Source of the DNA: Hybos culiciformis
Lineage: Eukaryota > Arthropoda > Insecta > Diptera > Hybotidae
NCBI GenBank assembly: GCA_964007475.1
Contig: OZ023274.1
Span: 53,711,678-53,775,677, forward strand
Direction of reading: 5' to 3'
Length of the DNA: 64,000 nt
Made by a program: the position numbers and the translations under genes. Below, piece after piece: positions 23,713 through 61,403 of the stretch. The notes under the pieces are model-generated. The model was not told the DNA's origin and searched no databases. It saw only the letters and a list, made by a program, of their open reading frames with translations. Every line of letters starts with the position of its first letter. Position 1 is the first letter of the stretch.

Positions 23713-24733
23713 GGGTTACACTTGCTAAAAAAAAAAAACTTGATTATGATTTTTTTTAATGTAGTGTGAAATTTTTATGAGTCAAAAATCATACTGGCTT
23801 GGACTTCATGTTCCAGAGGCATTCGTGCTCCCTGTATAAATTTATAAATTTTAATATTTCTTCCTTATAAAATATTTTTAAACATGTTTTTTCTATTTTC
23901 TCTCTTTTTACTAAGTTCTTAGTTTTTATAAACTTCACCTTTTTCAATAAAATATCTTGTTTTTTAAAGTAAGTTATTTTATTTATTTAATAAATAATTC
24001 ACATAGATTTTTTTCAATTTCAACATTCAAATTCCAATCCCGTAATAACAAACGGCACCGTGACATTTGTCCGCGGGACATTTGTCCGCGATGAAATTTG
24101 TATGGAAAACTTCGCGGACAAATATCATTTTACAAAATGTCATTTTACAAAATGTCATTTTACAAAATGACATTTGTCCGCGATTGTAAAATGACATTTG
24201 TTCGCCGCGGACAAATGTCTCAAAATGCGCGGAGAAATGACATTTTGCAAAATGACATTTGTCCGCGATTGAATTTTCAAACTTTAGCGGACAAATGTCA
24301 TTTGTCCGCGATTGATTTTTCAGTTTTTTAGCGGACAAATGTCATTTTGCAAAATGTCATTTGTCCGCGATTACTTTTTATCGTGGACAAATGACATTTT
24401 GCAAAATGACATTTGTCCGCGGCGGACAAAAGTCATTTCGAATCGCGGACAAATGTCACTTTGATGTCCGCGATACAAAAACAAATCGCGGACAAATGTC
24501 CCGCGGACAAATGTCCAACCCCCATAACAAACCGCTTTTATTATTGTTGTTTGCGCTTTCAAGAGGTTACTTTTTTCTTTGGCAGCCAAAAATTTTCTTT
24601 TGACAGAAAAAATCAACACTGATTTTTCTTAAACATGATTTTTCATCATGATTATTTCTTGATTTTTTTTCACACAAAATTTCGCACATACATTCAAAAA
24701 AAATCATGATTTTTTTTTCAGCAAGTGTAACCC
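23713..24733. mobile_element. TIR element (GGGTTACACTTGCT ends) hosting another transposon
   Basis: The left end GGGTTACACTTGCTAAAAAA and the right end TTTTTTCAGCAAGTGTAACC(C) are inverted repeats, and TCACAC/GTGTGA and AAAATCATGATT words recur inside both. The roughly 1-kb span includes the independently inserted palindromic element at 24054-24523; without it the host would be about 550 bp. No coding sequence. Confidence 0.7.
24054..24523. mobile_element. Modular palindromic transposon, ACATTTGT subfamily
   Basis: The element starts GGCACCGTG and ends CCAACCCCC, flanked by direct repeats ATAACAAAC (24045-24053, 24524-24532). The interior is a series of small palindromes built from CCGCG, an 8-base word (ACATTTGT or its complement ACAAATGT) and CATTTTGCAAAATG. 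The scaffold is the same as in the elements at 39377 and 60741, where the word is AAATAAGG. No open reading frame encodes a transposase; the short frames here are translations of the repeats. Superfamily unknown; the 8-9 bp duplication would suit hAT-, Merlin- or MULE-like enzymes. Confidence 0.88.
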
Positions 24734-25020
24734 CCAGGTTAGAAATACAATAATAATTTTTCAGAAACTATAAAATTCAAATTATAACTTAAATTTTATT
24801 TACGCGCCTAGAAAAAAAAAGACGTAAACTATAAAAAAAGATGAACTAGTTCATCTTTTTTTTTTTTGCTATAAAAAAAGATTACAAAAAAAGACACCAA
24901 AAAAAAAAAAAGATGACTATTCGTACTGCTCTAACTTATTAGTTTTTGTATCTTCTGTCCTGTTTTGTTTTGGGATCTTTTTTTTTTGCCATTTTTAGCC
25001 ATTGTGTAAATCAAGCTTTA

Positions 25021-25290
25021 TGGTGGCTTTACACGCTCGTTCTTGTGTTCGTTGTTCGTTGTACCTTGTTCGTTGTACGTTGTTATCAACGAACAACGAA
25101 AAAACGTTTACACCATTCCTTCTTTTAAATTTTGTTCGTTGTAACAAGGTACAACGAAATTTCAAAAAGTTTTGAAATTTTCATAAGAATGTACGTTGTT
25201 CAGTTTTGCCGTTTACACCTTCGTTGAACAGTGTACGTTCAACATGGTACAACGTACACTGGGTAAAACAACGAGCGTGTAAAGCCACCA
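25021..25290. mobile_element. MITE with 21-bp terminal inverted repeats
   Basis: The 21-bp ends (left TGGTGGCTTTACACGCTCGT plus T; right the reverse complement, finishing GAGCGTGTAAAGCCACCA) are perfect. The interior has many GTTCGTTGT / ACAACGAAC words arranged as further inverted repeats. About 270 bp, flanked by TTA on both sides (possible 3-bp target duplication). Non-coding. Confidence 0.88.
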
Positions 25291-26009
25291 TTAAATTCGA
25301 GTGAAAACTTAAATCGGAATTATGTAATTCGAATTCGGATTTTTATTTTATTTTTTTTTTTGAAGATTCGAATATTTTATTTAATAAAGTTGGCTATAAA
25401 TATTGACGGCATTATGTAGAGGATATATATACACGGCATTATGCAACTCGAAAAACGAATAAAAATTAAATAAAAATCAAACGGAAAAAAAGATAACCAA
25501 AAAAGAAAATAATTTGTTTTAAATGTAAGTACATTTTTAATAAAATTAAATTAAAAAATATATTTTAAGTGTTTTAAAAATAAAATTTTCAATGTTACTT
25601 TATTTATTATTAAATTAATATTTTATATTAATATTAATTCTCAAATAAATAATAAAAAAGTAAAACAAAAAAAAAATGTCTTCCAAAATATATTTGAAAT
25701 TGAAGTTAAACACTATCCATTAATTAAAAATTTTGGAAATAGGACCCCCAAAGTTTTCATACATTTTTGTATGGAAATTTTTTTGTTGTGTCCGATTTGC
25801 CCTATTTTTGGGTAGGTAATAGAGGCGGTCCCTAAAATGTTAAATCCGAGATTGTTTTTGCGGGAAGGCCCCCATTTCGGAGTTATGGGCCCTTCAAAAT
25901 TTTCATATGTTACTTCATGTGAAATACGTTTTTTAAACTTCGAAAACAGGGCACAAAAATACCAATTAGCTGGATAAACCAAATGAGCTAAAAATTTGGA
26001 AATTCAGGA
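25291..26009. other. Intergenic A+T-rich DNA with a decayed GC-richer repeat
   Basis: No gene seen. Around 25735-25925 the sequence is less A+T-rich (GGACCCCC, GGCGGTCCC, GGGCCC words) and looks like an old mobile element, but no ends or coding motif can be recognised. Confidence 0.35.
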
Positions 26010-26365
26010 TCATTCATCGATTATGGGTAGAATTTGTTCGCCTTTAATATAAAAATATAATGTAAATACGAAATAAAAAATAAAAACGGCTAAAAAATAA
26101 AAAAAACTAATCATTTTTAACATTTTTATAACCAAACTATTATTTTCTTTCGGCAAATCAACATTACGGATAAATTTATATATGTTATCAAATTCATTAA
26201 ATAATTCAATTAATTTTTGTTCTGATATCATTATAAAAATCATTTTAAAAACCATAACCAAAACTGCATATGCCATACCCATTGACTGAAATTCATTCTA
26301 TCATGTGAACTTCTAATTGCTTCAATAATCAACATTACTCCAATTAGACCTGAGGAAATGACCAT
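26010..26365 (-). pseudogene. Possible insect chemoreceptor-like membrane protein fragment, frameshifted
   Basis: On the minus strand a frame after a plausible splice acceptor (TTTAG at 26366-26370) gives a hydrophobic segment (SSGLIGVMLIIEAIRSS). A one-base shift near 26282 leads into a 90-codon frame with a second hydrophobic segment (AYAVLVMVFKMIFIMI), the polar stretch EQKLIELFNEFDNIYKFI and a third hydrophobic segment (ISFFYFLAVFIFYFVFTLYF). This pattern resembles part of an insect odorant or gustatory receptor, but there is no diagnostic motif. A+T-rich DNA readily encodes F/I/L-rich segments, so confidence is low. Confidence 0.3.
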
Positions 26366-34312: not shown

Positions 34313-34411
34313 TGTAATTTATTATTTTTAATCTTTTTGATTATTTCTAACTTATTTCTTATATATATATAATCTATCCGGATATTTTGTTTATTCATTT
34401 TTACTACTTTC

Positions 34412-39034: not shown

Positions 39035-39376
39035 TAATAAATAGTGAAAATCTTATTAAGATTCAATTCGAAATATTTTCTTAAGAAATCAAATTTTTTT
39101 ACACCTATTCAGAAAAAACATTTATATTCATTTTATGATACCGTATTTATTTTTTAATTTTGAAATCCTATTAGGTAGGTACAGCCGTATAGCGAATTCT
39201 CACTTAAAAAATAATCATCAAAAACTTACTGAAATAAAGGTGATCTTTCTTCATCTACTGCTAAAGGTTTTAGTTAAATCTATGCTATTTAAATGATTTT
39301 TCTTCAAACTGTAAGTTTACTACGATTAAACCGAATCGAAAAAGATTTAAGGTAGAAACAGAATGTGGCATCGTCC

Positions 39377-39775
39377 GGCGCAGTGAAATAAGGCCGCGGG
39401 AAATAAGGCCGCGATAGGTTTTTTGTTGCGGTCTTATTTCATTTTGAAAAATGAAATAAGGCCGCGAAAAAATCCTCGCGGTCTTATTTCATTTTGAAAA
39501 ATGAAATAAGACCGCATAAAATTCCTCGCGGCCGTATTTCGTTTTGAAAAATGAAATAAGACCGCGACAAAAAAAAAAAATTAATCGGAGGGCTAATTTC
39601 ATTTTGAAAAATGAAATAAGGCCGCGAGGATTTTTTCGCGGCCTTATTTCATTTTGAAAAACGAAATAAGGCCGCGAAAAAATCTTCGCGGCCTTATTTC
39701 ATTTTTCAAAATGAAATAAGACCGCAACAAAAAAACGTCGCGGCCTTATTTCCTGCGGCCTTATTTCCATCCCCC
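39377..39775. mobile_element. Modular palindromic transposon, AAATAAGG subfamily, copy 1
   Basis: Starts GGCGCAGTG and ends CCATCCCCC, flanked by CATCGTCC on both sides (39369-39376, 39776-39783). The right copy of the segmental duplication has a single CATCGTCC with no insert (near 49686), giving a clean empty site. The interior repeats CGCGG, CCTTATTT, CATTTTGAAAAATG, AAATAAGG, CCGCG several times, with occasional CCGCG to ACCGC changes. No coding capacity. Confidence 0.92.
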
Positions 39776-40744
39776 CATCGTCCTTCGCCTCATGCTTGGA
39801 CTCTGCGTTAAGAATTAATATTAGCGTTTTGATAACGTTGTTGACGTTTTTTAGAAATAAATAAATTATTAATATTACTTTATATATTACTTTATTAGCC
39901 CTAAACAAATCAATATTGTAAGAGGGATGTGGAAAGATATCTCAGTTTTGTATTTATAGGAATTCCTAATTTCTTTTGGCTACACATATCAGTTAAAAAA
40001 AAATTAAGTTTCTTTTTATTTTCAAAAAACTTCTAAAATCAGTATTCAAAAACTACATACATAACAGCAATCTGGATTCATTCATTAAAATTAAAATTGA
40101 TCTGCAATTTTGAAAATTTTTTTTGAAAATTCTTTAATCATTGCTGCGAAAAGAACTATATCTAATCTTTTTTGAAGAAATTTCGTATTTAAAGAAATTA
40201 AATTTTAATAACTTTTGTTTCCTTGATCTTTGAACTTGTTATTAAGATTTATTTGTTTAATATTTGAAGATATTTTTTATTTTAAAAGTTTTGAACTTTT
40301 ATTTTCTTTAAACTCCAACCTTTTTTAGAGATTAAACAATTAATTTGATAAATTACACTATACAACATTCACAACAAACTCAACTTTAGATTAAATTAAA
40401 TCAAGCAGGTATAAGTTGAATGAAAGTTAAAAGATTTATTTGTTAATATTTGCTCAAAGTTTGAGACTATAAATTGATCATAAGCTGTGTTTTATGCCAC
40501 TTCTTCGAAATGAGTATTCAAAAAATGTTTGAGACCTTTGTAACATCTGATCTAAAACGATTGCGTAGAATGTCCGAACGTATTCGATCCTCTTCACTCA
40601 GATTTAATTGTTGTTCAGTTGCGAACCTAGTATACACAAAGGAAATAAAATAAATTGAATTGAAAATATTCATTAATTAAAGAATTTCGAAAAATCTTCG
40701 CTCGATCTAACCATCTAACAACCATCTCAGCGCGGATTTTTTTT

Positions 40745-41390
40745 GAAGTTTATACTTCTTTAGGCGCGATGTATGATATAAATGAGTAATTCTGTAGGGG
40801 GTAAAAATTTTTTTACTCATTCGAATTTGAGTTAAAAAAAAAAACGACATGCTGTACCGTTTGAATACTCAAAAAAAATGAGTCAACTCAATAATCATTT
40901 GTTATTTATAAAAACAAAATAATTTGGCGCGAAAAATTTAAATTCAAATTATTTTTAAAAATCTTTCGTTTACAAATTTTTTAAAATTTAAATTTTTTTT
41001 CAAATTAGGTAGTTCAATAATCATTTGTCATTTATAAAAACAAAATAATTTGGCGCGGAAAATTTAAATTCAAATTATTTTTTAAAAATCTTTCGTTTAC
41101 AAATTATTTAACAACTAAAATTTATTTTTCAAAATAGGTAGGTCCGGTGAAATAAAGATTACCTGCCGAAAATTTTTTGGGCAGGGACCTACGGTTAGGT
41201 CGTGCCGGCTCAAAATATGTTAAAAAAAAATTTTTCCTCCGGTCAAATAATTAGATTACCTGACCAAAAATTTTGGATACGGAGCTACAGTTAGAGTCTT
41301 CCCGCCTCAAAATATACCAAAATAATTTTTTTTTTCAAAATAGGTAGCTCGGGTGAGAAATAAAGATTACCTGCCCAAAAAAAAGGAAGA
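40745..41390. repeat. Repeat cluster before the left minisatellite (124-bp and about 105-bp units)
   Basis: Two units of 124 bp start at 40889 and 41013; each holds CAATAATCATTTGT, AATTTGGCGCG and AAATCTTTCGTTTACAAATT. From 41133 there are units of about 105 bp containing AGGTAGCTCCGGTGAAATAA, GATTACCTGCC and GGCAGGGAGCTACGGTTAGG. Similar clusters occur at 44095-44830 and 50700-51300. This is the host sequence in which the 12-bp minisatellite expanded. Confidence 0.8.
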
Positions 41391-41392
41391 AA

Positions 41393-43732: not shown

Positions 43733-43860
43733 TTGACCAAAAATTTTGGAGAGGGAGCTATGGTTAGGGTCTTCCCTGCTTAAAATATGCAAAAAAAAAA
43801 GTTTTTAAATAGGTAGCGCCGGTGAAATAAAGAGTCGTCCTGGCTCAAAATATAAAAAAA

Positions 43861-44916: not shown

Positions 44917-45427
44917 TTTTTCTAATTTTATTTGTAGTACAGTAGTGTAACAGTGTTATTCTATTATTCAATAAATTGATATTATAAGTTTGCAAAAAGT
45001 TAATCTTTAAAAAATTGAGATTCAGACATCAGTTTAATAGAGACAAACTGATATTCCGAAATTTTTAAAAGAACCGCCAATTCAATTTATAATAGAATAT
45101 TTTATCGGTATAACTTAATTATACCTGTTTCGAAATAAATAATGTTGATAATAAAGCAAAATCAAATGAAGAATTTTATTATGAAATAACCGGATCGATG
45201 AAAAATGTTTTATATTTTAATTCTTAATACATTTATTATATGCATATGTTCTCAACAACAAAAATTTCTATATTATTTTTTCTCTAATCAGTTTTCGTTC
45301 TACTTTTTTTTTAAATCTTCAAAATGAATTTTACTTTTTAAATAAGACAATATTTATTTTGTAATTCATTTTTAACTCAAGCTTCGTTGAAACCAGAAAT
45401 AAAACTTTTGCATAGTTAACTATAAAA

Positions 45428-47200
45428 ATGTTTAGAATACTTATTTTATTATGTGTTCTATTGTCAATAGTTCATAATATCAGAAGCTCTCTAAATGATA
45501 AAGAATCATTGGTGAAAACTTTTATTAAAAATCTTGCTGATAAGTTAGATACTAATGTCAATCCATGCGACAATTTCACACTTTATGCTTGCGGTGAAGT
45601 CTCGAATGAAAAAGAAGAAAAAATAGAAACACCGGAAACAAATATTACACAAATGATATTAGAGGGCGAACCAAAAAATGAACATGAATTTAAATTGCAA
45701 CAATATTTTAAAGCGTGTACATTGGCTAAAGAAAATGATTGGAAAGAAGATGAAATAATAACAAAATGTTTTGAAAATATTGATATTTTAAAAGATTTCC
45801 GCGAGTGGTCAATAGACAATATTATAAACCAAGTGAAGGTATCTCAATTTCTAGGTGAAATAACATCAATATATAGACTACAAAATTATATAAGTGCATT
45901 ACCACGCAATGGAAAATTGGAAATATCTAGTCCAAAATTAGAATTATATCAAGACGAACCAGAATTAACAACAAGTGATATTATTGTTTTTATTAAAGAA
46001 TTTCATGCAATTTTAGATCCAAAAGCAAAAAGAACTGATGATGAAGTTTTCAATACAGCAAAAAAAATTAAAAATTTTGATAAACAAATTGAAGAAATTT
46101 TAATTGAAGATAATTTGGAGAAAATTAATTTAAGTTCTTCAGAAGTAAAGGGATTCGATTGGACAGAATTTTTTAAAGTTATGCAAAGAAATTGGTATCT
46201 AAATTCAACTGTTGAAATAATTGTGACTGATAATCGTGTAACTAAAATTATTCAGCTATTAAGTGAAACCGATTCAAATCTAATTATTGATCATCTAATA
46301 ATAAAATTAATAAATTTTATTAAAAAAGATATGTCAAAAAATGATATATGCAAAAAAAGTTATTTAATGGCCATGGTTATTGCCGATAAATATTATGGAA
46401 AAATTATATCTGAAGATACTGAAAATCGTAGTAAAATGATGGTTCAATTGTTTAAAGAAAATTATTATACTTTGCAAGCTTTGAAAAAAAATAATAGTTA
46501 TACTGTTGAAGATCCAAGTGAAATAGAAAAATATTTATTAATCTTTGATAGATTCTTAAATAGAACATCATTTCTTGATAATAATTTGCAGTTTAATCGA
46601 ATTAAAATTTCGGAAACAAATTTCTTACAAAATTATTTGAATATGGAGAGGAATTTCTTATGGTCACATGAACCATCTGGTGAAATTGGAAATGATCTAT
46701 TTGTATTACAATGGATGTATTATCCTGCCATTAAATTTCTATTAAAACTACAAAATAAACCATTATTTGCTCACTTTTTTGAAGAAGATTTTAGATTATG
46801 GCATATTATATTCGAAGGACATACTGAATGGATAACAACAAAAAGTGATGATTTTCTTAATTGCATTTATGAACAACAAATAAACTTAAATTACACAACA
46901 AGAAATAAACGGAATTTTTTTATTGATAATGCTTCAGTTATGATGAGCACTAAAAATTATGAACATTTTATTAATCAATTAAATGATAATATTTATAAAA
47001 TTACTTTTGAAACTTTAAAAGAAAATAATCTTGATTTCAAAAAACTTTATTTTATTGGCTTGAAGCAAGCTTTTTGCTGGAATAATGAAGCTGATTATTT
47101 AGATTTAATTTATAAAAATACTGAGAAATTTACAGATGCGTTCAATTGTAAAGCTGGCGATGAGATGTATGTTGAGCCCAGATGTGAAATTGAGATTTAA
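45428..47200 (+). CDS. Secreted, catalytically dead M13 (neprilysin-like) protein A, left copy
   Basis: Intronless, 590 codons. Residues 1-20 (MFRILILLCVLLSIVHNIRS) form a signal peptide, giving a secreted protein without the membrane anchor of neprilysin. Then comes NPCDNFTLYACG, the M13 N-terminal signature. The C-terminus aligns with the neprilysin end: FLNC, LYFIGLKQAFCW (neprilysin LFFLNFAQVWC), and FTDAFNCKAGDEMYVEPRCE (AFxC-x4-xM-x-P-x-x-x-C). The zinc site HExxH and the downstream ExxxD are absent: the expected position reads EIGNDLFVLQWMYYPAIKF. Family members are 670-750 residues, so it is somewhat short. It is therefore very unlikely to be a peptidase; binding or decoy roles are conceivable. 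Strong paralogue at 55548. Confidence 0.85.
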   Translation: MFRILILLCVLLSIVHNIRSSLNDKESLVKTFIKNLADKLDTNVNPCDNFTLYACGEVSNEKEEKIETPETNITQMILEGEPKNEHEFKLQQYFKACTLAKENDWKEDEIITKCFENIDILKDFREWSIDNIINQVKVSQFLGEITSIYRLQNYISALPRNGKLEISSPKLELYQDEPELTTSDIIVFIKEFHAILDPKAKRTDDEVFNTAKKIKNFDKQIEEILIEDNLEKINLSSSEVKGFDWTEFFKVMQRNWYLNSTVEIIVTDNRVTKIIQLLSETDSNLIIDHLIIKLINFIKKDMSKNDICKKSYLMAMVIADKYYGKIISEDTENRSKMMVQLFKENYYTLQALKKNNSYTVEDPSEIEKYLLIFDRFLNRTSFLDNNLQFNRIKISETNFLQNYLNMERNFLWSHEPSGEIGNDLFVLQWMYYPAIKFLLKLQNKPLFAHFFEEDFRLWHIIFEGHTEWITTKSDDFLNCIYEQQINLNYTTRNKRNFFIDNASVMMSTKNYEHFINQLNDNIYKITFETLKENNLDFKKLYFIGLKQAFCWNNEADYLDLIYKNTEKFTDAFNCKAGDEMYVEPRCEIEI

Positions 47201-48802: not shown

Positions 48803-51330
48803 TAATAAAAGTTGCTAAATCTTGATGTTTTCAATTTAAAATTTAATCAGACTTTTGAAGGAGACATAATTACTACTTATATTAACCCAATTATAAAAAT
48901 ATTGCCGAAGAAAGATATTGGTTATTTTATGAGGATTTCAATAGGAAATAGAGATAATTTCTGAGCAATCATTTAAACTTGAAAATTTTTATTAAGATTT
49001 CACTCCGTATATTCCGGATATAAGAATAAATTCTTGATCTTAATTTAAACCTTCGTTAAATTGATATTTTTCATTCTTTGGTTTGAGAATTGAGCCAAAA
49101 GCTTAGCTTTTATCAAAATGTCAAGGTGAGTATACTACTTATTTATCCTTGTTTAAATCCAAAACAACTAGTGTTCAAATTATATAATTGCAGCTTTAAT
49201 AAACTATGTATATAATTGAAACAAAAATATAAAAGAATGTATAATATATTATTTAAATTTTACTACTCGCGCAAATCAGTATTCGAATTATTTAATAATT
49301 GTAATTTGATGGATAGAAATGATAGGTAACTTAATTTGACAAATAAATGGATCAATATATCAAAACTGAGCCTGGTGAAATTAAATACGATAATAAATAG
49401 TAAAAAATTTATTAAGATTCAATTCGAAACATTTTCTTAAGAAATATAATTTTTTTTCACCTATTCAGAAAAAACATTTATATACATTTTATGATACCGT
49501 ATTACTTTTTTAATTCTCAATTAACATATAATCCCTAAATAATTACTGAAATAAAGGTTATCTTTTTTCACCTACTGCTAAAGGTTTTAGTTAAATCTAT
49601 ACTATTTAAATGATTTTTGTTCAAAGTGTAAGTTACAACGATTAAACCGAATCGAAAAAGATTAAAGTTAAAAACAGAATGCGGCATCGTCCTTCGCCTC
49701 ATGCTTGGACTCGTCGTTAAGAATTAATATTAGGCTTTTGTTAACGTTGTTGACGTTTTTCAGAAATAAATAAATTATTAATATTACTTTATATATTACT
49801 TTATTAGCCCTAAACAAATCAATATTGTAAGAGGGATGTGGAAAGATATCTCAGTTTTTTATTTAGAGGAATCTCTACTTTCTTTTGGCAACACATATCA
49901 GTTTAAAGAAAATTAAGTTTCTTTTTTTCTTCAAAAAACTTCTAAAATCAGTATTCAAAAACTACATACATAACAGCAATCTGGATTCATCCATTAAAAT
50001 TAAAATTGATCTGCAATTTTGAACAATTTTTTTGGAAATTCTTAAATCATTGCTGCGAAAAGAACTATATCTAATCTTTTTTGAAGAAATTTCGTATTTC
50101 AAGAAATTAAATTTTAATAACTTTTGTTTCCTTGATCTTTCAACTTGTTATTAAGATTTATTTGTTTAATATTTGAAGATATTTTTAATTTTAAAAGTTT
50201 TGAACTTTTATTTTCTTTAAACTCCAACCTTTTTTAGAGATTAAACAATTAATTTGATAAATTACACTATACAACATTCACAACAAACTCAACTTTAGAT
50301 TAAATTAAATCAAGCAGGTATAAGTTGAATGAAAGTTAAAAGATTTATTTGTTAATATTTGCTCAAAGTTTGAGACTATAAATTGATCATAAGCTGTGTT
50401 TTATGCCACTTCTTCGAAATGAGTATTTAAAAAATGTTTGTGACCTTTGAGCATCTGATCTAAAACGATTGCGTAGAATGTCCGAACGTATTCGATCCTC
50501 TTCACTCAGATTTAATTGTTGTTCAGTTGCAAACCTAGTATACACAAAGGATTCGTTTTTCTAAAACCAAACATTTGTTACTGGAAATAAAATAAATTGA
50601 ATTGACAATATTCATTAATTAGAGAATTTCGAAAAATCTTCGCTCGATCTAACCATCTAACAACCATCTCAGCGCGGAATTTTTTGAAGTTTATACTTCT
50701 TTAGGCGCGGGTGTATGATATAAATGAGTAATTCTGTAGGGGGTAAAAATTTTTTTACTCATTCGAATTTGAGTTAAAAAAAAAAACGACATGCTGTACC
50801 GTTTGAATACTCAAAAAAAATGAGTCAACTCAATAATCATTTGTTATTTATAAAAACAAAATAATTTGGCGCGAAAAATTTAAATTCAAATTATTTTTAA
50901 AAATCTTTCGTTTACAAATTTTTTAAAATTTAAATTTTTTTTCAAATTAGGTAGTTCAATAATCATTTGTCATTTATAAAAACAAAATAATTTGGCGTGG
51001 AAAATTTAAATTCAAATTATTTTTTAAAAATCTTTCGTTTACAAATTATTTAACAACTAAAATTTATTTTTCATAATAGGTAGGTCCGGTGAAATAAAGA
51101 TTACCTGCCGAAAATTTTTTGGGCGGTTAGGTCGTGCCGGCTAAAATATGTTAAAAAAAAATGTTTCCTCCGGTGAAATAATTAGATTACCTGACCAAAA
51201 ATTTTGGATACGGAGCTACAGTTAGAGTCTTCCCGCCTCAAAATATACCAAAATAATAAATAAAGATTACCTGCCCAAAAATATACCAAAATAATAAATA
51301 AAGATTACCTGCCCAAAAAAAAGGAAGGAA
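48803..51330. other. Spacer of the right duplicate
   Basis: Matches 37990-41392 of the left copy apart from the two transposons missing here, so it records the empty sites. No gene. From 50700 it contains the same repeat cluster (AATTTGGCGCG units, GGTCCGGTGAAATAA units) that precedes the left minisatellite. Confidence 0.8.
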
Positions 51331-54300
51331 GTGAGGGCGGCAGTAAGGGCTGAAGAGAGGTCGGAAGGGAGGGCGGAAGGGAGGGCGGAAGGGAGGGCGG
51401 AAGGGGGGGCGGAAGCGGGGTCGGAAGGGAGGGCGGAAGGGGGGGCGGAAGGGAGGGCGGAAGGGAAGCCGGAAGAGAGGGCGGAAGGGAGGGCGGAAGG
51501 GAGGGCGGAACGGAGGACAGAAGTTAGGGCGGAAGTTAGGGCGGAAGTTAGGGCGGAAGTTAGGGCGGAAGTTAGGGCGGAAGTGAGGGCGGAAGTTAGG
51601 GCGGAAGTGAGGGCGGAAGTGAGGGCGGAAGTGAGGGCGGAAGTGAGGGCGGAAGTGAGGGCGGAAGTGAGGGCGGAGTGAGGGCGGAAGTGAGGGCGGA
51701 AGTGAGGGCGGAAGCGAGGGCGGAAGTAAGGGCGGAAGTGAGGGCGGAAGTGAGGGCGGAAGTGAGGGCGGAAGTGAGGGCGGAAGTGAGGGCGGAAGTG
51801 AGGGCGGAAGTGAGGGCGGAAGTGAGGGCGGTAGTGAGGGCGGAAGTGAGGGCGGAAGTGAGGGCGGAAGTGAGGGCGGAAGTGAGGGCGGAAGTGAGGG
51901 CGGAAGTGAGGGCGGAAGTGAGGGCGGAAGTTAGGGCGGAAGTGAGGGCGGAAGTGAGGGCAGAAGTGAGGGCGGAAGTGAGAGCGGAAGTAAGGGCGGA
52001 AGTAAGGGCGGAAGTGAGGGCGGAAGTGAGGGCGGAAGTGAGGGCGGAAGTGAGGGCGGAAGTGAGGGCGGAAGTGAGGGCAGAGTGAGGGCGGAAGTGA
52101 GGGCGGAAGTGAGGGCGGAAGTGAGGGCGGAAGCGAGGGCGGAAGTGAGGGCGGAAGTGAGGGCGGAAGTGAGGGCGGAAGTGAGGGCGGAAGTGAGGGC
52201 GGAAGTGAGGGCGGAAGTGAGGGCGGAAGTGAGGGCGGAAGTGAGGGCGGAAGTGAGGGCGGAAGTGAGGGCGGAAGTGAGGGCGGAAGTGAGGGCGGAA
52301 GTGAGGGCGGAAGTGAGGGCGGAAGTGAGGGCGGAAGTGAGGGCGGAAGTGAGGGCGGAAGTGAGGGCGGAAGTGAGGGCGGAAGTGAGGGCGGAAGTGA
52401 GGGCGGAAGTGAGGGCGGAAGTGAGGGCGGAAGTGAGGGCGGAAGTGAGGGCGGAAGTGAGGGCGGAAGTGAGGGCGGAAGTGAGGGCGGAAGTGAGGGC
52501 GGAAGTGAGGGCGGAAGTGAGGGCGGAAGTGAGGGCGGAAGTGAGGGCGGAAGTGAGGGCGGAAGTGAGGGCGGAAGTGAGGGCGGAAGTGAGGGTGGAA
52601 GTGAGGGCGGAAGTGAGGGCGGAAGTGAGGGCGGAAGTGAGGGCGGAAGTGAGGGCGGAAGTGAGGGCGGAAGTGAGGGCGGAAGTGAGGGCGGAATTGA
52701 GGGCGGAAGTGAGGGCGGAAGTGAGGGCGGAAGTGAGGGCGGAAGTGAGGGCGGAAGTGAGGGCGGAAGTGAGGGCGGAAGTGAGGGCGGAAGTGAGGGT
52801 GGAAGTGAGGGTGGAAGTGAGGGCGGAAGTGAGGGCAGAAGTGAGGGCGGAAGTGAGGGCGGAAGTGAGGGCGGAAGTGAGGGCGGAAGTGAGGGTGGAA
52901 GTGAGGGCGGAAGTGAGGGCGGAAGTGAGGGCAGAAGTGAGGGCGGAGGTGAGGGCGGAAGTGAGGGTGGAAGTGAGGGCGGAAGTGAGGGCGGAAGTGA
53001 GGGTGGAAGTGAGGGCGGAAGTGAGGGCGGAAGTGAGGGCGGAAGTGAGGGCGGAAGTGAGGGCGGAAGTGAGGGCGGAAGTGAGGGCGGTAGTGAGGGC
53101 GGTAGTGAGGGCGGAAGTGAGGGCGGAAGTGAGGGCGGAAGTGAGGGCGGAAGTGAGGGCGGAAGTGAGGGCGGAAGTGAGGGCGGAAGTGAGGGCGGTA
53201 GTGAGGGCGGAAGTGAGGGCGGAAGTGAGGGCGGAAGTGAGGGCGGAAGTGAGGGCGGAAGTGAGGGCGGAAGTGAGTGCGGAAGTGAGTGCGGAAGTGA
53301 GGGCGGAAGTGAGGGCGGAAGTGAGGGTGGAAGTGAAGGTGGAAGTGAGGGTGGAAGTGAGGGCGGAAGTGAGGGCAGAAGTGAGGGCAGAAGTGAGGGC
53401 GGAAGTGAGGGCGGAAGTGAGGGTGGAAGTGGGGGTGGAAGTGAGGGCGGAAGTGAGGGCAGAAGTGAGGGCAGAAGTGAGGGCGGAAGTGAGGGCGGAA
53501 GTGAGGGTGGAAGTGGGGGCGGAAGTGAGGGCGGAAGTGAAGGCGGAAGTGAGAGCGGAAGTGATGGCGGAAGTGAGGGCGGAAGTGAGGGCGGAAGTGA
53601 GGGCGGTAGTGAGGGCGGAAGTGAGGGCGGAAGTGAGGGCGGAAGTGAGGGCGGAAGTGAGGGTGGAAGTGAGGGCGGAAGTGAGGGCGGAAGTGAGGGC
53701 AGAAGTGAGGGCGGAGGTGAGGGCGGAAGTGAGGGTGGAAGTGAGGGCGGAAGTGAGGGCGGAAGTGAGGGTGGAAGTGAGGGCGGAAGTGAGGGCGGAA
53801 GTGAGGGCGGAAGTGAGGGCGGAAGTGAGGGCGGAAGTGAGGGCGGAAGTGAGGGCGGTAGTGAGGGCGGAAGTGAGGGCGGAAGTGAGGGCGGAAGTGA
53901 GGGCGGAAGTGAGGGCGGAAGTGAGGGCGGAAGTGAGGGCGGAAGTGAGGGCGGAAGTGAGGGCGGAAGTGAGGGCGGTAGTGAGGGCGGAAGTGAGGGC
54001 GGAAGTGAGGGCGGAAGTGAGGGCGGAAGTGAGGGCGGAAGTGAGGGCGGAAGTGAGGGCGGAAGTGAGTGCGGAAGTGAGTGCGGAAGTGAGGGCGGAA
54101 GTGAGGGCGGAAGTGAGGGTGGAAGTGAGGGTGGAAGTGAGGGTGGAAGTGAGGGCGGAAGTGAGGGCAGAAGTGAGGGCAGAAGTGAGGGCGGAAGTGA
54201 GGGCGGAAGTGAGGGTGGAAGTGGGGGTGGAAGTGAGGGCGGAAGTGAGGGCAGAAGTGAGGGCAGAAGTGAGGGCGGAAGTGAGGGCGGAAGTGAGGGT

Positions 54301-54482
54301 GGAAGTGGGGGCGGAAGTGAGGGCGGAAGTGAAGGCGGAAGTGAGAGCGGAAGTGATGGCGGAAGTGAGGGCGGAAGTGAGGGCGGAAGTGAGGGCGGTA
54401 GTGAGGGCGGAAGTGAGGGCGGAAGTGAGAGCGGAAGTGAGGGCGGAAGTGAGGGCGGAAGTGAGGGCGGAAGTGAGGGTGG
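51331..54482. repeat. 12-bp minisatellite (GAAGTGAGGGCG)n, right array, with 792-bp higher-order repeat
   Basis: About 3.15 kb of the same unit as the left array. A higher-order duplication is visible: the variant pairs GTGAGTGCGG (near 53275 and 54067) and GTGATGGCGG (53561 and 54353) recur exactly 792 bp (66 units) apart with matching neighbours. Frames of more than 1000 codons (LPPS repeated, minus strand) and 812 codons (RAEV repeated, plus strand) result from the unit length and are not genes. Confidence 0.97.
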
Positions 54483-54552
54483 AATTACCTGACCAAAAAT
54501 TTTGGAGAGGGAGCTATGGTTAGGGTCTTCCCTGCTTAAAATATGCAAAAAA

Positions 54553-54782
54553 AACACACGAAGCAGTCATAGGAACTGCCGAAAGAAGTTTATACTTAAA
54601 GCTTTAAACTATGAAATAACAGCGGCTATAAATGATGGGCTGCTCAGTACAAAATGTAAATTAAAATAAAAATCAGTCCAGCAGTCCAAAAGCAGTCCAT
54701 TATTTGTAGTCATTGTTATTTCATAGTTTAAAGCTTTAAGTATAAACTTCTTTCGGCAGTTCCTATGACTGCTTCGTGTGTT
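54553..54782. mobile_element. 230-bp long-TIR MITE, right copy
   Basis: Same element as 43861-44090, bounded by AACACACGAAGC and GCTTCGTGTGTT, and nearly identical to it. It lies between the minisatellite and the A gene in both duplicates. Confidence 0.9.
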
Positions 54783-55366: not shown

Positions 55367-55547
55367 ATGTCCCCACAACACAGTTTTCTATATTCTTTTT
55401 TCTATAATCAGTTTTCGCTCTACTTTTTTTTTAAATCTTCAAATAGAATTTTACTTTTTAAATAAGACAATATTTATTTTGTAATTCATTTTTAACTTAA
55501 GCTTCGTTGAAACCAGAAATAAAAATTTTGCATAGTTAACTATAAAA

Positions 55548-57320
55548 ATGTTTAGAATACTTATTTTATTATGTGTTCTATTGTCAGTAGTTCATAATAT
55601 CAGAAGCTCTCTAAATGATAAAGAATCATTGGTGAAAACTTTTATTAAAAATCTTGCTGATAACTTAGATACTAATGTCAATCCATGCGACAATTTCACA
55701 CTTTATGCTTGCGGTGAAGTCTCGAATGAAAAAGAAATAAAAATAGAAACACCGGAAACAAATATTACACAAATGATATTAGAGGACGAACCAAAAAATG
55801 AACATGAATTTAAATTGCAACAATATTTTAAAGCGTGTAAATTGGCTAAAGAATATGATTGGAAAGAAGATGAATTAATAACAATTTTTTTTGAAAATAT
55901 TGATATTTTAAAAGATTTCCGCGAGTGGTCAATAGACAATATTATAAACCAAGTGAAGGTATCTCAATTTCTAGGTGAAATAACATCAATATTTAGACTA
56001 CAAAATTATATAAGTGCATTACCACGCAATGGAAAATTGGAATTATCTAGTCCGAAATTAGAATTATACCAAGACGAACCAGAATTTACAACAAGTGAAA
56101 TTATTTTTTTTATTAAAGAATTTCATGCAATTTTGGATCCAAAAGCAAAAAGAACTGATGATGAATTTTTGAATATAGCAAAAAAAATTAAAACTTTTGA
56201 TAAAAAAATTGAAGAAATTTTAATTGAAGATAATTTGGAGAAAATTAATTTAAGTTCTTCAGAAGTAAAGGGATTCGATTGGACAGAATTTTTTAAAGTT
56301 ATGCAAAGAAATTGGTATCTAAATTCAACTGTTGAAATAATTGTGACTGATAATCGTGTAACTAAAATTATTCAGCTATTAAGTGAAACCGATTCAAATA
56401 TCATTATTGATCATCTAATAATAAAATTAATGTATTTTATTCATAATGATATGTCAAAAAAAGATTTATGCACAAAAAGTGATTTAATGGCCATGGTTAT
56501 TGTTGATAAATATTATAGAAAAATCATATCTGAAGATACTGAAAATCGTAGTAAAATGATGGTTAAATTGTTTAAAGAAAATTATTACACTTTGCAAGCT
56601 TTGAAAAAAAATAATAGTTATACTGTTGAAGATCCAAGTGAAATAGAAAAATATTTATTAATCTTTGATAGATTCTTAAATAGAACATCATTTCTTGATA
56701 ATAATTTGCAGTTTAATCGAATTAAAATTTCGGAAACAAATTTCTTACAAAATTATGTCAATATGGAGAGGAATTTCTTATGGTCACATCAACCATCTGG
56801 TGAAATTGGAAATGATATATTTGTAATACAATGGCTGTATGAACCTGCCATTAAATTTCTATTAAAACTACAAAATAAACCATTATTTGCTCACTTTTTT
56901 GAAGAAGATTTTAGATTATGGCATATCATATTCGAAGGACATACTGAATGGATAACAACAAAAAGTGATGATTTTCTTAATTGCATTTATGAACAACAAA
57001 TAAACTTAAATGACACAACAAGAAATAAACAGAAATTTTTTATTGATAATGCTTCAGTTATGATGAGCACTAAAAATTATGAACATTTTATTAATCAATT
57101 AAATGATAATATTTATAAAATTACTTTTGAAACTTTAAAAGAAAATAATCTTGATTTAAAAAAACTTTATTTTATTGGCTTGAAGCAAGCTTTTTGCTGG
57201 AACAATGAAGGTAATTATTTAGATTTAATTTATAAAAATACTGAGAAATTTACAGATGCGTTCAATTGTAAAGCTGGCGATGAGATGTATGTTGAGCCCA
57301 GATGTGAAATTGAGATTTAA
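55548..57320 (+). CDS. Secreted, catalytically dead M13 (neprilysin-like) protein A', right copy
   Basis: Intronless, 590 codons, colinear with 45428-47200 and without indels. It has the same signal peptide (one I to V change), NPCDNFTLYACG, WYLNSTVEIIVTDNRV and the C-terminal signature FTDAFNCKAGDEMYVEPRCE. HExxH is absent here too. By eye it differs from the left copy at about 42 residues but only about 7 silent codons, clustered from residue 60 onwards (for example KEN/KEY, TKC/TIF, KK/HN). The left copy's C at the TKC site is F here, so that cysteine is not essential. Both frames are fully open while the neighbouring B copies decay, so selection keeps A and A' intact. An AATAAA overlaps the end of the frame. 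Confidence 0.86.
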   Translation: MFRILILLCVLLSVVHNIRSSLNDKESLVKTFIKNLADNLDTNVNPCDNFTLYACGEVSNEKEIKIETPETNITQMILEDEPKNEHEFKLQQYFKACKLAKEYDWKEDELITIFFENIDILKDFREWSIDNIINQVKVSQFLGEITSIFRLQNYISALPRNGKLELSSPKLELYQDEPEFTTSEIIFFIKEFHAILDPKAKRTDDEFLNIAKKIKTFDKKIEEILIEDNLEKINLSSSEVKGFDWTEFFKVMQRNWYLNSTVEIIVTDNRVTKIIQLLSETDSNIIIDHLIIKLMYFIHNDMSKKDLCTKSDLMAMVIVDKYYRKIISEDTENRSKMMVKLFKENYYTLQALKKNNSYTVEDPSEIEKYLLIFDRFLNRTSFLDNNLQFNRIKISETNFLQNYVNMERNFLWSHQPSGEIGNDIFVIQWLYEPAIKFLLKLQNKPLFAHFFEEDFRLWHIIFEGHTEWITTKSDDFLNCIYEQQINLNDTTRNKQKFFIDNASVMMSTKNYEHFINQLNDNIYKITFETLKENNLDLKKLYFIGLKQAFCWNNEGNYLDLIYKNTEKFTDAFNCKAGDEMYVEPRCEIEI

Positions 57321-57512
57321 ATAAATATGTACATATAGTATATCTAAGAATAAAAAATGTTAAAAAGTTAATAAATTGACTTTAAAATTATTATTATGCT
57401 TTTAAATTTTCTAAAACCAATATACTAATTGCAAGCCAATCAATATACTAATACAAAGCCAACGGCTAATTCTAATAATATCTATATACAGTAATATGTG
57501 AAGAAATTTTTT
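57321..57512. other. 3' flank of gene A'
   Basis: Contains AATAAA-type signals and the right end of the segmental duplication near 57435. Nothing else recognised. Confidence 0.5.
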
Positions 57513-58620
57513 TTTTTTTTTTATTTACTTATTTACTTTATTTAGTATAATTAACTATTATAATATTTCTTTTAAAAACTTAATTAATTGAAATTTATTT
57601 TAATAAATTGAACAATTCCTTTTTTAAATATATTGATGTTATTTTCTTTTTTCAAATCATCTGTTAGTTCATTGAAGATTTTTAAACCATTATACATCAG
57701 CATATTTTTTGTTTTTTCATTTCTAAATAAATTTAATCTAAACGAGAAAATGTTCCTCAACGTATATCCGTGCACATCACTAGCAAACACTAATCTCTCA
57801 CATAGGTATTTAGGGTACAAGTTGTTCTTCATCTTGAAAACTACAATCAACACATTCATAATAATCCTTTGTTTAATTGTCATCCATTTTAATGCTTCCA
57901 ACATAAAATCAATAGGAGTATATTTACTAACTTTCAGGATAGTCCTCATTGCTCGATTCTGTAGCTTCTGTAGCCTTAAAAATACCTCCTCATTTGCCAT
58001 GAATGTTATGCTCGAACAATATTCAAAATGAGGCTTCACAATTGTGTTGTAAATGTTGATTGCCCATTTCATCGATAATTTTTTTCTGATTTGTGAAAAG
58101 AAATATATTTTTTTTGCTATCTTTTTACAAATATTATTGAATTGTGTTTTGAATTTTAATTCTTTATCAATAATTATTCCTAAATATTTAATTTCATCAA
58201 CAATTTCAATATTTTGATCATCTATTTCAATGTCAATTTCCTTCGTGCCATTAATTACCATACATTTAGTCTTTTCTGTGTTCAGCTTTAACTTATTCAT
58301 CCGAAACCAGAAACTTAGTTTTTCTAGTTCCGAATTCATAATCCGCACACATTCATCTATATCATCTCCCATATAATATAACAATGAGTCATCCGCAAAC
58401 AAAATTAGTTTTGCAAAAGTCAATGCTAGATTCATGTCATTGACATATAAAACAAATAATAGAACACCAAGCACAGACCCCTGAGGAACACCCATCAATA
58501 CTTCCATTCCATCTGAAACCAATCCATTAACCTTAGTTTTTTGTCTTCTATTAATTAAATAACTATGAAACCATTTAAGTTCCCTGTCACAAACACCATA
58601 CATTTGCAATTTTCATATAT
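57513..58620 (-). mobile_element. 5'-truncated non-LTR retrotransposon, reverse transcriptase C-terminal half
   Basis: On the minus strand a frame of about 340 codons ends at 57584. It carries GVPQGSVLGVLLFVLYVNDM (RT motif 4), FADDSLLY (the catalytic FADD box), LKLNTEKTKCMVI and YLGIIID, then the usual thumb and C-terminal region (LQKLQNRAMRTI, VHGYTLRN). This is a jockey/CR1-group RT. The 5' half, including endonuclease and early RT motifs, is missing, with a stop just upstream at 58613. The 3' end is an A run preceded by AAATAAGTAAATA, seen as T-rich sequence at 57509-57540. In GVPQGSVLG-V-LLF the usual P after G is V. Not autonomous. Confidence 0.92.
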
Positions 58621-58810
58621 TTCTTTAGGAACCGATACGACTTTGATTCCGAACCAAATTGGATATATTTTTTTTATTAAAAGGTTACCATTAGTAGAAG
58701 TGTTATCAAATAAAAAATCAGTGCATCCTTTTTACATTTTCTAAAAATGCAATTTTTTTTTTTTTTATATTATTTTTTTAATTAGAACCAGAAAACTAAT
58801 TTAGAGGACT

Positions 58811-59207
58811 AAAGGTTGATTCACACATATCAGTCACGTCAAAGTTCCGTCACCGTTCCGTCACCGTCATGTATCCGTCAATATCTTGACCTGTGTCTAC
58901 ACACTTCAGTAACGTCACCGTTCCGTCCCGTTTTTTTAGGTACAAAATAAAAAATAAAAACTTTGTTTTGTTTGTTTTGCTTTCAATTTCAAAAATGCCG
59001 TGAGTCAAAAAAAAAAATATCGTCGGAAAGTAATTTAATTTTGACGGCTCGTTGACGGTGGGACGACTGATGGTTCGGTGACGTGACGGCGCCGGATGAG
59101 TGAAGACAATTCATTTAAATTACAAGGAACGATATTTTTTTTGATTGAAATTACGTGCCGGTGACGTGACGGTGACTTGACGTGGTTGATATGTGTGAAT
59201 TGACTTT
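58811..59207. mobile_element. MITE, copy 2 (inverted relative to copy 1)
   Basis: The ends AAAGGTTGATTCACACATAT and ATATGTGTGAATTGACTTT are inverted repeats. The interior has the same landmarks as 12021-12394 in reverse order: the ACAAGGAACGATATTTTTT landmark lies near the right end here and near the left end there. About 397 bp, non-coding. Confidence 0.87.
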
Positions 59208-59628
59208 AAATCTTATTTATAAATAGTTGTTTGAAATAGATATTCTTATTTAGCTCTGTGTTATGCATTCAAATTACAATAAAAATATATATTAAAAAAT
59301 TATTAAATTATAATTATTTTTTAATGATAATACTATTTTTTTTATTATGTGAATCGATAAAATCTTAAAATTTAAAAACATTGATGAACAGCAGCATAAA
59401 TTTAATAGTTTTATCTTTTATATTGATGAAACATAATAATAATAATTTTCCTCCTTTATTTTGTTTGCAAAATCATTTTGCATTCTTTAAAAAGAAGTAA
59501 TTTTTTTACACACAAGTTAAATCTAATGCATTTAAAAGCTTTTGTAATATATGCAAAAAAGAGTTATGGCTTGATCACATCTAATCTACCTATCTGAATA
59601 AAAGCATTGATTAAGGATACTAAAAAGA

Positions 59629-60133
59629 TTATTTATTTATTTATTTATTTCAAAAAAACAATCAAAAGGCTAAAAGCCCATATACAAATGCTAAGTACTT
59701 AAAAAAAAAAAAAAAAGAGTAGACTTAATAACTATTTACTTAAACTATATACATTTTTATAATTTGGATAAAAATCACAAAATTTACAAAAATACATCAA
59801 CCTTCATTTGTATGTAGATTTAACATAAAAAAATTGAAATAAATTAGAAATCAACAAAATTTCATTATAAAAATTTGATCACCAGGGCATCCAAGCAAAT
59901 GACAAAAATGATATAAAATTAATTAAATTGATAAGATTCAAACTAATTGTATTATATCATCAAGCTAGATTAATTCAATTGAGCTAGATGCATCCTGAGG
60001 TACTTAAACAGTCAGAACTTTTGATTGGGTCTGGCAAAAGATTATACAAACGTGCAGCTCTTACAAAAAAAGATTGCTTCATATGTCTGGATCTATGAAA
60101 AGGAACTAATAGCATTTGACGACGTATTGTTTG
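59629..60133 (-). mobile_element. Non-LTR retrotransposon 3' end (second family)
   Basis: On the minus strand, 60133-59984 reads RRQMLLVPFHRSRHMKQSFF and then VRAARLYNLLPDPIKSS before a stop. This is the arginine-rich segment plus R-x-x-R-L-(Y/W)-N-x-L-P that ends many non-LTR ORF2 proteins. About 330 bp of 3' UTR follows, finishing in an AAAT repeat (TTTA on the plus strand, 59629-59648). Only the last 50 codons are preserved. Confidence 0.75.
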
Positions 60134-60740
60134 TATCCTTAATTACAGCTAATTAACCTATTTGATACAGTAAAAACGATTTCCTATGTTATTATTCCAT
60201 TTATTGAAATGAAATTGGGAGAAATGCAAGATATTAATTTTTATTTATTTTTCGTAAAACGATTTTAAAAAAAATATGTTAAAATAATTAAGAAAATTGA
60301 GTTTCTTTCATTTCTATCTGATTTTTTTTGATTCAGGTAACTTCTATTTCACAATTTGCTAATAATCAGAAAGTATAGTTTTTAGGCATATAATTTTAAA
60401 ATGATTATGAAAATGTGAAATTATTTATTTATCCAATGGTGTTGCAATTTCAGTTTTATATTTTTTTTCAGTTAATTTTTTGGATTCAGGTAAAATTAAT
60501 AGGTTTCGGAATATTCCTCCAAAAACTATTTTACGGTGGTAGCTGTGATCAAGCCATTAAAAAGAGCCTTCCTTTTTTTCGCTTTTCCTTCATTTTTTCA
60601 TCAAAACTTTTTTTAAAGCGTTTTCTATTACAGGTGTATTTGAAAATCTTGTTCATTTCACATTAAAATATTTTTTTTAATCTGAATAATTTTTTTGTGA
60701 CTAGGTATAAAAGATTGATTTCTATTTTATCCTTTTTCAT
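60134..60740. other. A+T-rich intergenic sequence
   Basis: No gene or repeat recognised. The 83-codon frame at 60415 is F/L/I-rich with no motif and is probably chance. Confidence 0.4.
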
Positions 60741-61395
60741 GGCGCAGTGAAATATGGCCGCGGGAAATAAGGCCGCGATAGGTTTTTTTGTTGCGGTCTT
60801 ATTTCATTTTGAAAAACGAAATAAGACCGCGTAATCTTGTGAGGTGAGCACACAGGGCAGGGGGTAGAAATAAGACCGCATAAAATTCCTCGCGGCCTTA
60901 TTTCGTTTTGAAAAATGAAATAAGACCGCGACAAAAAAAAAAATTAATCGGAGGGCTAATTTCATTTTGAAAAATGAAATAAGGCCGCGAGGATTTTTTC
61001 GCGGCCTTATTTCATTTTGAAAAACGAAATAAGACCGCGTAATCTTGTGAGGTGAGCACACAGGGCAGGGGGTAGCAGGGCGGCGGGCGGGCGGTTGGTC
61101 AGTGGGATTTATTAGCCCTCCGAAAAATTGTTTTTTTTGTCGCGGCCTTATTTCATTTTTCAAAACGAAATAAGGCCGCGAGGAATTTTTTGCGGTCTTA
61201 TTTCATTTTTCAAAATGAAATAAGACCGCGAGGATTTTTTCGCGGCCTTATTTCATTTTGAAAAACGAAATAAGGCCGCGAAAAAATCTTCGCGGCCTTA
61301 TTTCATTTTTCAAAATGAAATAAGACCGCAACAAAAAAACGTCGCGGCCTTATTTCCTGCGGCCTTATTTCCTGCGGCCTTATTTCCATCCCCCC
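60741..61395. mobile_element. Modular palindromic transposon, AAATAAGG subfamily, copy 2 (long form)
   Basis: Starts GGCGCAGTG and ends CCATCCCCCC, flanked by TTTTTCAT on both sides (60733-60740, 61396-61403; 9 bp if a shared C is counted). It has the same palindromic modules as 39377-39775 but is longer. Two copies of an extra segment containing AATCTTGTGAGGTGAGCACA and CAGGGCAGGGGGTAG (near 60833 and 61039) lie within module arms, the second followed by a G-rich run. Adjacent to the right end, the word CCTTATTTCCTGCGG is repeated once more than in copy 1. No transposase. Confidence 0.92.
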
Positions 61396-61403
61396 TTTTT
61401 CAT

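What the first reader, a model, noticed from the sequence alone, without database searches (positions are those of the whole stretch)
24054..61395. Palindromic transposons in which one 8-base word has been swapped throughout a constant scaffold
Three elements (24054-24523, 39377-39775, 60741-61395) share the module CGCGG + W' + CATTTTG(M)AAAATG + W + CCGCG, where W is an 8-base word and W' its reverse complement. They also share ends: GTG + W + CCGCGGG + W + CCGCGAT at the left, and CGCGG + W' + CC(T)GCGG + W' + CC(A/T)xCCCCC at the right. In two elements W is AAATAAGG; in the third it is ACATTTGT. The word is replaced consistently at almost every position, on both strands, including the terminal repeats, while the flanking constant bases hold. 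Ordinary mutation cannot do this one copy at a time. It implies homogenisation inside an element, by templated copying, conversion between hairpins, or rebuilding of the element from a single module. I know of no described family with this property. That W equals the target-duplication length (8-9 bp) is intriguing; one speculation is that a captured target duplication became the word.
Basis: partly seen in the sequence, partly recalled or inferred. Interest (0 to 1): 0.93.

Follow-up and report, generated by a model that had tools for sequence, protein, structure and literature searches.

The report
Jumping-gene families with swappable DNA address words
These are short non-coding jumping genes packed with copies of one family-specific DNA word that is probably the landing site of the enzyme that moves them; the families use different words on similar frames, a pattern already known in outline from mosquito, nematode and plant elements.

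Summary
The three elements carry one word each at nearly every site, and 8-9 bp target duplications; empty sites show two of the insertions. In the 342-Mb genome the CCGCG frame carries at least four discrete words: A AAATAAGG (5,490 exact 14-mers), B ACATTTGT (not counted), C AATTTTGA (1,167), D TGTTATAA (3,428). Words are nearly pure within an element; the A/B chimeric words searched for number 67. None of 11 target duplications equals a word.

The copies tested are not homogenising themselves: each site resembles the same site in other copies more than its neighbours, so each family was copied from an already uniform master.

Best explanation: non-autonomous "foldback" Mutator-like (MULE, Phantom/Muta/Tm1-type) elements, the word being the iterated binding site of each family's own protein, most likely the transposase. 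Ten of 22 sampled MULE loci of this genome have 15-16 bp-period arrays, each of another word; three full transposase frames are 51-55% identical yet have unrelated words. Precedents: Muta1, Tm1, VANDAL/VANC. No transposase carrying words A-D was found.

The parts
24045..24053 (.). left target-site duplication ATAACAAAC of element 1
   Evidence: exact 9-bp repeat; single copy in the empty paralogous site L056
24054..24523 (+). element 1, word family B (ACATTTGT / TCATTTGT); caps GGCACCGTG and, from the right, GGGGGTTGG
   Evidence: 16 of 16 assigned sites are word B; caps
24524..24532 (.). right target-site duplication ATAACAAAC of element 1
39369..39376 (.). left target-site duplication CATCGTCC of element 2
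   Evidence: single copy in the empty site at 49544-49842
39377..39775 (+). element 2, word family A (AAATAAGG / AAATAAGA); caps GGCGCAGTG and, from the right, GGGGGATGG; two terminal units at each end
   Evidence: 15 of 15 assigned sites are word A
39776..39783 (.). right target-site duplication CATCGTCC of element 2
49544..49842 (+). paralogous empty site of element 2
   Evidence: 282 of 300 identical across the junction
60732..60740 (.). left target-site duplication CTTTTTCAT of element 3
   Evidence: edge ambiguous by one base
60741..61394 (+). element 3, word family A; three terminal 15-bp units at the right end
   Evidence: 21 of 21 assigned sites are word A
61037..61110 (+). GC-rich internal stretch of element 3; related pieces occur in A, B and C elements and in an abundant separate palindromic repeat
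61395..61403 (.). right target-site duplication CTTTTTCAT of element 3
   Evidence: edge ambiguous by one base

Best explanation
The elements are non-autonomous foldback transposons of the Mutator-like (MULE) kind of Phantom/Muta/Tm1. The unit G-W8-CCGCG, repeated at a 15-bp register at the ends and as palindromic pairs inside, is the iterated binding site of the family's own transposase. SHOWN: insertion (8-9 bp duplications, two empty sites); near-pure, discrete words; unit number varying 1-3 at the ends of sister copies; the 15-bp-period array design, with other words, next to MULE transposase genes of this genome. INFERRED: that the word is what the transposase reads (its N-terminal FLYWCH-type finger in the three full genes sampled). 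Also inferred: a changed unit takes over when an array shrinks to one or few units and re-expands by slippage or gap repair; the new uniform master then spreads only with a transposase that reads it, so word and protein change together while the CG-rich anchor stays. The copies tested inherit the array and do not homogenise it further.
For: 8-9 bp duplications in 11 of 22 clusters, in families A, B and C. Clean empty sites for two of ten elements tested, both in the window. Purity: A clusters 99 of 100 assigned sites, B clusters 198 of 199 (my sums, leaving out the one cluster that merges a B and a D element). Terminal pairs GN8CCGCGGGN8CCGCG: 1,601 against 0 control; of the 100 listed I count 32 A-A, 68 B-B, 0 mixed. 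Chimeras 10 and 57. Position-specific variants shared between copies. Terminal unit number 1, 2 and 3 in A right ends of L032, element 2 and element 3. At least 145 MULE-domain matches in the genome. The three full frames sampled carry FLYWCH + MULE domains, are 51-55% identical and have unrelated words. Ten of 22 sampled MULE loci show arrays of period 15 (nine) or 16 (one) (TRF run on 12 of the 22, the rest judged by eye); GGGTT-type caps are visible in five (L051, L052, L053, L055, L065). L052 and L053 have inverted arrays on both sides of the frame and, by eye, 8-bp duplications AAAAAAAT and TTTTAAAT (the first is low-complexity). Literature: Muta1 end = terminal motif + nine 12-bp repeats with 3-4 bp spacers, 8-9 bp TSD (PMC5225508, passages); the Phantom group that includes Muta has 'None or FLYWCH or SWIM' fingers (PMC6446971, passages); Tm1 = asymmetric 7-bp end motifs, GGA, ~14-bp CGATTCAGTATCCGC units, 9-bp TSD (PMC3169594, passages).
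Against: No transposase was found inside an element with words A-D: a search of L031-L050 with the three MULE proteins gave only a weak remnant outside the C element of L041. The MULE arrays sampled lack the CCGCG anchor. Family D's outer ends and duplication were not resolved; of two D ends seen, only one shows the 15-bp terminal period. Twelve of 22 sampled MULE loci showed no full array in the short stretch fetched. C clusters are less pure (36 of 42 assigned sites). Binding was not tested. The A-D internal modules are palindromic pairs spread through the element, whereas the MULE arrays are head-to-tail, so the match is in caps, register and duplication, not in every feature.
Confidence: 0.7

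Rival explanations
1. Ordinary diverged subfamilies: A, B, C and D are simply old separate transposon families that happen to share CG-rich sequence, with no special word replacement.
For: The spacers of A and B look unrelated by eye. A and B words share 4 of 8 letters. Copies within a family are plain descendants of a master. The GC-rich inner piece they share is also part of a separate abundant repeat, so it is no proof of common descent.
Against: A, B and C share AAAATG-W-CCGCG, G-rich caps and the 15-bp terminal period, and in each family the word differs in step at nearly all sites; only two words with graded intermediates was not what the searches showed.
Confidence: 0.35
2. The word is read not by the transposase but by a helper, such as an element-encoded anti-silencing protein as in VANDAL/VANC, or by a host factor.
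For: VANC proteins act on 8-9 bp motifs in tandem repeats of MULE non-coding regions, with different motifs in related families (PMC5735166, PMC10398659, passages).
Against: Here the units begin right next to the outermost cap, where a transposase must act; Muta1 transposed in yeast, a foreign host (PMC5225508, passages); no second frame of 150 aa or more was seen in L051-L053.
Confidence: 0.2
3. Active homogenisation inside each element by hairpin-templated conversion.
For: Uniform words; palindromic modules that could fold; unit number changes at the ends.
Against: Different sites of one element are about as unlike as sites of different elements, while homologous sites are more alike. Conversion acting on present copies would reverse this.
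Confidence: 0.08
4. The word is a captured target-site duplication.
For: Word length (8) equals the duplication length (8-9).
Against: None of 11 duplications equals the word, and they differ from each other.
Confidence: 0.01

Closest known systems
Muta1 and the other Muta families of Aedes aegypti (Phantom-group MULEs; PMC5225508, passages read)
   Same: 8-9 bp target duplications; short terminal motif followed by nine 12-bp (Muta1) or 15-bp (Muta5) subterminal units, i.e. roughly 15-bp spacing; 14 families in one genome; many small non-autonomous derivatives with variable unit number
   Different: In A-D the units are also spread through the element as palindromic pairs and carry a common CCGCG anchor; no transposase was found for them
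Tm1 of root-knot nematodes (Mutator/Foldback; PMC3169594, passages read)
   Same: asymmetric 7-bp end motifs, GGA, then ~14-bp units CGATTCAGTATCCGC in variable number, 9-bp duplications, Phantom-like transposase; the unit can be read as GGA-word-CCGC like ours (my reading)
   Different: one unit type; 39 and 22 copies in two species, against thousands of word copies per family here
VANDAL MULEs with VANC proteins in Arabidopsis (PMC5735166 abstract and passages, PMC10398659 passages read)
   Same: family-specific 8-9 bp motifs that accumulated by tandem repetition and changed together, coevolving with an element-encoded DNA-binding protein
   Different: the binding protein is an anti-silencing factor; plant elements; other motifs, without CCGCG
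Galileo of Drosophila (P superfamily, foldback-like; PMC3688188, abstract and sections 2.5-2.6 read)
   Same: several transposase-binding sites within long internally repetitive ends; weak or no binding across subfamilies in most tests
   Different: P-type transposase with THAP domain; not searched for here
Rehavkus (PMC6446971, passages) and FB-NOF (recalled)
   Same: 9-bp duplications, ends up to 400 bp, minisatellite
   Different: PHD finger in the transposase; not compared by sequence here

Membership tests
Mutator-like (MULE), Phantom/Muta type | 8-10 bp target-site duplication | tested here: met
   8-9 bp in 11 of 22 clusters; empty sites for elements 1 and 2
Mutator-like (MULE), Phantom/Muta type | composite ends: short cap plus short repeated units | tested here: met
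   caps and 1-3 terminal 15-bp units in the A, B, C ends shown; 10 of 22 MULE loci of the same genome have 15-16 bp arrays, five with visible caps
Mutator-like (MULE), Phantom/Muta type | MULE DDE transposase within an element of the same family | tested here: inconclusive
Mutator-like (MULE), Phantom/Muta type | FLYWCH-type finger in the transposase (present in some members only) | tested here: inconclusive
   met in L051-L053, which bear other words; no A-D transposase to test
Foldback elements (type 2) | long, internally repetitive inverted ends of variable length | tested here: met
VANDAL/VANC | element-encoded motif-binding anti-silencing protein | not tested
   no A-D element with coding capacity in hand
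Galileo / P superfamily | P-type transposase with THAP domain | not tested
   genome not searched for it
Rehavkus | PHD finger in the transposase, minisatellite next to one end | not tested
   only RING-like tails seen by eye in L068 and L069

The most novel reading that the evidence does not exclude
One transposon superfamily runs on a fixed 15-bp register and cap with an exchangeable address word. In this genome at least fourteen words (A-D plus ten in MULE arrays) are in use side by side, new families are born when an array collapses to a mutant unit and regrows, and the word can be decoded from the transposase's N-terminal finger. If so, the genome holds a natural recognition code for FLYWCH-MULE transposases.
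Probability: 0.3. Interest if true: 0.72.

Novelty: new member of a known kind. Interest (0 to 1): 0.5.

Why it matters
Family-specific iterated sites would explain how related transposases in one genome avoid moving each other's elements. With transposases 51-55% identical, a constant 15-bp spacing and many different words in a single genome, the pairing of DNA-binding finger and word becomes directly testable by sequence comparison and binding assays. The copy-versus-site test here also shows that an apparent 'word swap' needs no ongoing homogenisation, only a uniform founder.

Tried and rejected
Captured target duplication as the word: rejected (11 duplications). Ongoing within-element conversion: rejected for the copies tested. 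Gradual intermediates: rare among those searched. More CCGCG words with A or G at position 2 of W': 100 matches against 237 for the reversed control, so none abundant in that class; other classes were not searched. I first took the shared GC-rich inner stretch, and its place upstream of a MULE frame in L054, as a sign of common descent and of the autonomous partner. One search showed it to be an arm of a very abundant separate palindromic repeat (1,800 first-look candidates, 40 scored), so I do not claim it. Empty sites: ten elements were tested against the sequence held; two gave clean ones; flanks of L033 matched L049 (83%) and window 1553-1777 (78%) with indels, and those of L042 matched a neighbouring stretch of L042 itself, neither claimed; the rest gave none. 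Bacterial/archaeal and viral collections: no match to the full module. The protein search with an M13-like gene found nothing. The count of the B 14-mer was asked ten times and never answered. PMC2927773 (Phantom) is not held.
Full report
OBSERVATION. AAAATG-N8-CCGCG occurs 19 times in the window, all within the elements, against 0.03 expected from shuffles. With each N8-CCGC site assigned to the nearest of four words at up to 2 mismatches (others dropped), element 1 has 16 of 16 sites of word B, element 2 has 15 of 15 and element 3 has 21 of 21 of word A. The duplications are ATAACAAAC, CATCGTCC and CTTTTTCAT (the last ambiguous by one base). Two of the three insertions are shown by empty paralogous sites: element 1's flanks align at 292 of 302 bases to L056 (C1:68204410-68205110), which has one ATAACAAAC, and element 2's flanks align at 282 of 300 to window 49544-49842, in a nearby duplicate, with one CATCGTCC. 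No empty site for element 3 was found in the sequence held.

GENOME-WIDE WORDS. The window lies in a 342-Mb genome of 509 contigs, from an animal by its genes (4E-T and Zer-1-like LRR domains); I read it as an insect but did not identify it. AAAATGN8CCGCG: 12,593 matches against 43 for the reversed control. Exact A 14-mer GAAATAAGGCCGCG: 5,490 against 0. C 14-mer GAATTTTGACCGCG: 1,167 against 0. D 16-mer TGTTATAACCGCGAAA: 3,428 against 0. The B 14-mer count did not complete, but B makes up 68 of the 100 listed terminal pairs. The pair pattern GN8CCGCGGGN8CCGCG has 1,601 matches against 0; of the 100 listed (first 26.7 Mb of C1) I count 32 A-A, 68 B-B and none mixed. Words chimeric between A and B at positions 2 and 8 number 10 (control 0) and 57 (control 1); the five whose letters were printed, all, are each one change from A or B. 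Chimeras at positions 5 and 6 alone were not searched. In the listings I saw no place where two words interleave (by eye, first 7.3 Mb of C1). Per cluster: A 99 of 100, B 198 of 199, C 36 of 42 (L039 22/24, L041 5/5 and 9/13), D 12 of 12 in one cluster; the cluster L035:3788-5541 holds a B and a D element 0.6 kb apart and is left out.

NOT HOMOGENISING NOW. Five A and eight B copies were aligned, some trimmed or partial. Mismatches of 19 (sites within 5 of consensus): A homologous site in different copies 0.905 (169 pairs), different sites of one copy 3.176 (1,003), different sites of different copies 3.154 (3,979); B 1.266 (357), 2.745 (1,504), 2.845 (9,314). A stricter 13-base version: A 0.397, 1.316, 1.307; B 0.521, 0.788, 0.818; for B the within-copy figure is slightly lower than the between-copy figure in both versions, so a small local effect in B is not excluded. 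Variants mostly belong to positions and are inherited. The uniform array is a property of each family's founder. Turnover seen between copies is at the ends: the A right end has 1, 2 or 3 units in L032, element 2 and element 3, and B ends have 1 or 2.

WHAT THEY ARE. Caps and first units: A GGCGCAGTG+AAATAAGGCCGCGGG and GGGGGATGG+...; B GGCGCCGTG+ACATTTGTCCGCGGG and GGGGGTTGG+...; C GGGGCACTG+AATTATGACCGCATG. Where two units are present in A, B and C the terminal period is 15. Of two D ends seen, one reads GGTGAACTGACATAACCGCGAATGTCATAACCGCG, again period 15; the other does not. The genome has at least 145 MULE-domain matches. I took stretches at 22 of them, mostly high-scoring or open frames. 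Ten show tandem arrays of period 15 (nine) or 16 (one), all with different units, 8.7-13.5 copies (TRF on 12 of the 22, the others by eye): L051 TTTCACTGTATTTCA, L052 AAAATCCCAAAAATT, L053 AATTCTGTATTACAA, L055 GAGCGAAAGCAAAAA, L059 AGCAATTCATCGTAA, L062 TCTTGTTTTTTAAAA, L064 (A)nCCTCGAA, L065 GCCAAAATCCAGTAA, L066 CATTTGTTCGTAAAA, L071 GCCAAGTGGAATTGT. Twelve did not show a full array in the short stretch. L052 and L053 have the array inverted on the other side of the frame, GGGTTGGG-type caps and, by eye, 8-bp duplications AAAAAAAT (low-complexity) and TTTTAAAT; for L051 only one side lies in the stretch. The frames of L051, L052 and L053 (471, 464 and 498 aa) carry FLYWCH and MULE domains and are 51-55% identical over full length. 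So within one genome, related transposases go with arrays of unrelated words at one fixed spacing. Words A-D fit that series, with a common CCGCG anchor and dispersed palindromic modules as their own traits. L066's unit shares ACATTTGT with word B; that is a lead only.

LITERATURE. Muta1 of Aedes: 8-9 bp TSD, TIR of a 10-bp motif and nine 12-bp units with 3-4 bp spacers, called a type-2 Foldback; 10 of 12 long-TIR families have 9-15 bp subterminal units (PMC5225508, passages). Tm1: asymmetric end motifs, GGA, 13-15 bp units CGATTCAGTATCCGC, 9-bp TSD, Phantom-like transposase (PMC3169594, passages). MULE survey with Phantom and Rehavkus rows (PMC6446971, passages). Galileo: multiple THAP sites and weak or absent cross-binding between most subfamilies, with significant binding to the D. 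ananassae end (PMC3688188, abstract and two sections). VANDAL/VANC: motifs in tandem repeats that evolve together with the binding protein (PMC5735166 abstract and passages; PMC10398659 passages). None of the titles listed by my six full-text searches describes this CCGCG family; no search used the motif itself as a term, and only open-licence papers are held.

MECHANISM. Most likely the 15-bp unit is the transposase's binding site, repeated to give specificity, as argued for Galileo. A family changes its word when an array collapses and regrows from a variant unit and the protein follows. This last step is inference; it matches what was proposed for VANDAL.

Noticed in passing
L054:262-701; e.g. 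G000:C1:105324592-105325064: A very abundant separate palindromic repeat with ~235-bp arms head to head (1,800 first-look candidates, 40 scored, 80 matches); pieces of its GC-rich arm lie inside A, B and C elements.
   Followed up: partly
window, roughly 36.7-47.2 kb and 47.5-57.3 kb: A segmental duplication offset by about 10 kb (about 92% identical where compared) with similar 594-aa frames (45416-47200, 55536-57320; the second has a sub-cutoff M13-peptidase match); element 2 is in one copy only, so it inserted after the duplication or was lost from the other.
   Followed up: partly
window 41291-43767 and 51238-54566: Two long blocks of GC-rich short tandem repeats open in many frames, within the duplicated segments.
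   Followed up: no
window 57587-58612: Reverse-transcriptase fragment on the minus strand (RVT_1).
   Followed up: no
L056:315-616: The sequence into which element 1 inserted has at least one other copy, which lies about 1.2 kb upstream of a MULE-domain match.
   Followed up: partly
L068, L069: A second MULE group whose frames seem to run into a RING-like cysteine-rich tail (by eye).
   Followed up: no
G000:C1:872753-875222 and similar C loci: Some C elements have about 2 kb between the word clusters; the one read (L041) gave no match to three MULE proteins inside it, and a weak MULE remnant lies about 1 kb outside it.
   Followed up: partly
L066: A MULE array unit CATTTGTTCGTAAAA contains word B's ACATTTGT followed by TCGT instead of CCGC.
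   Followed up: no
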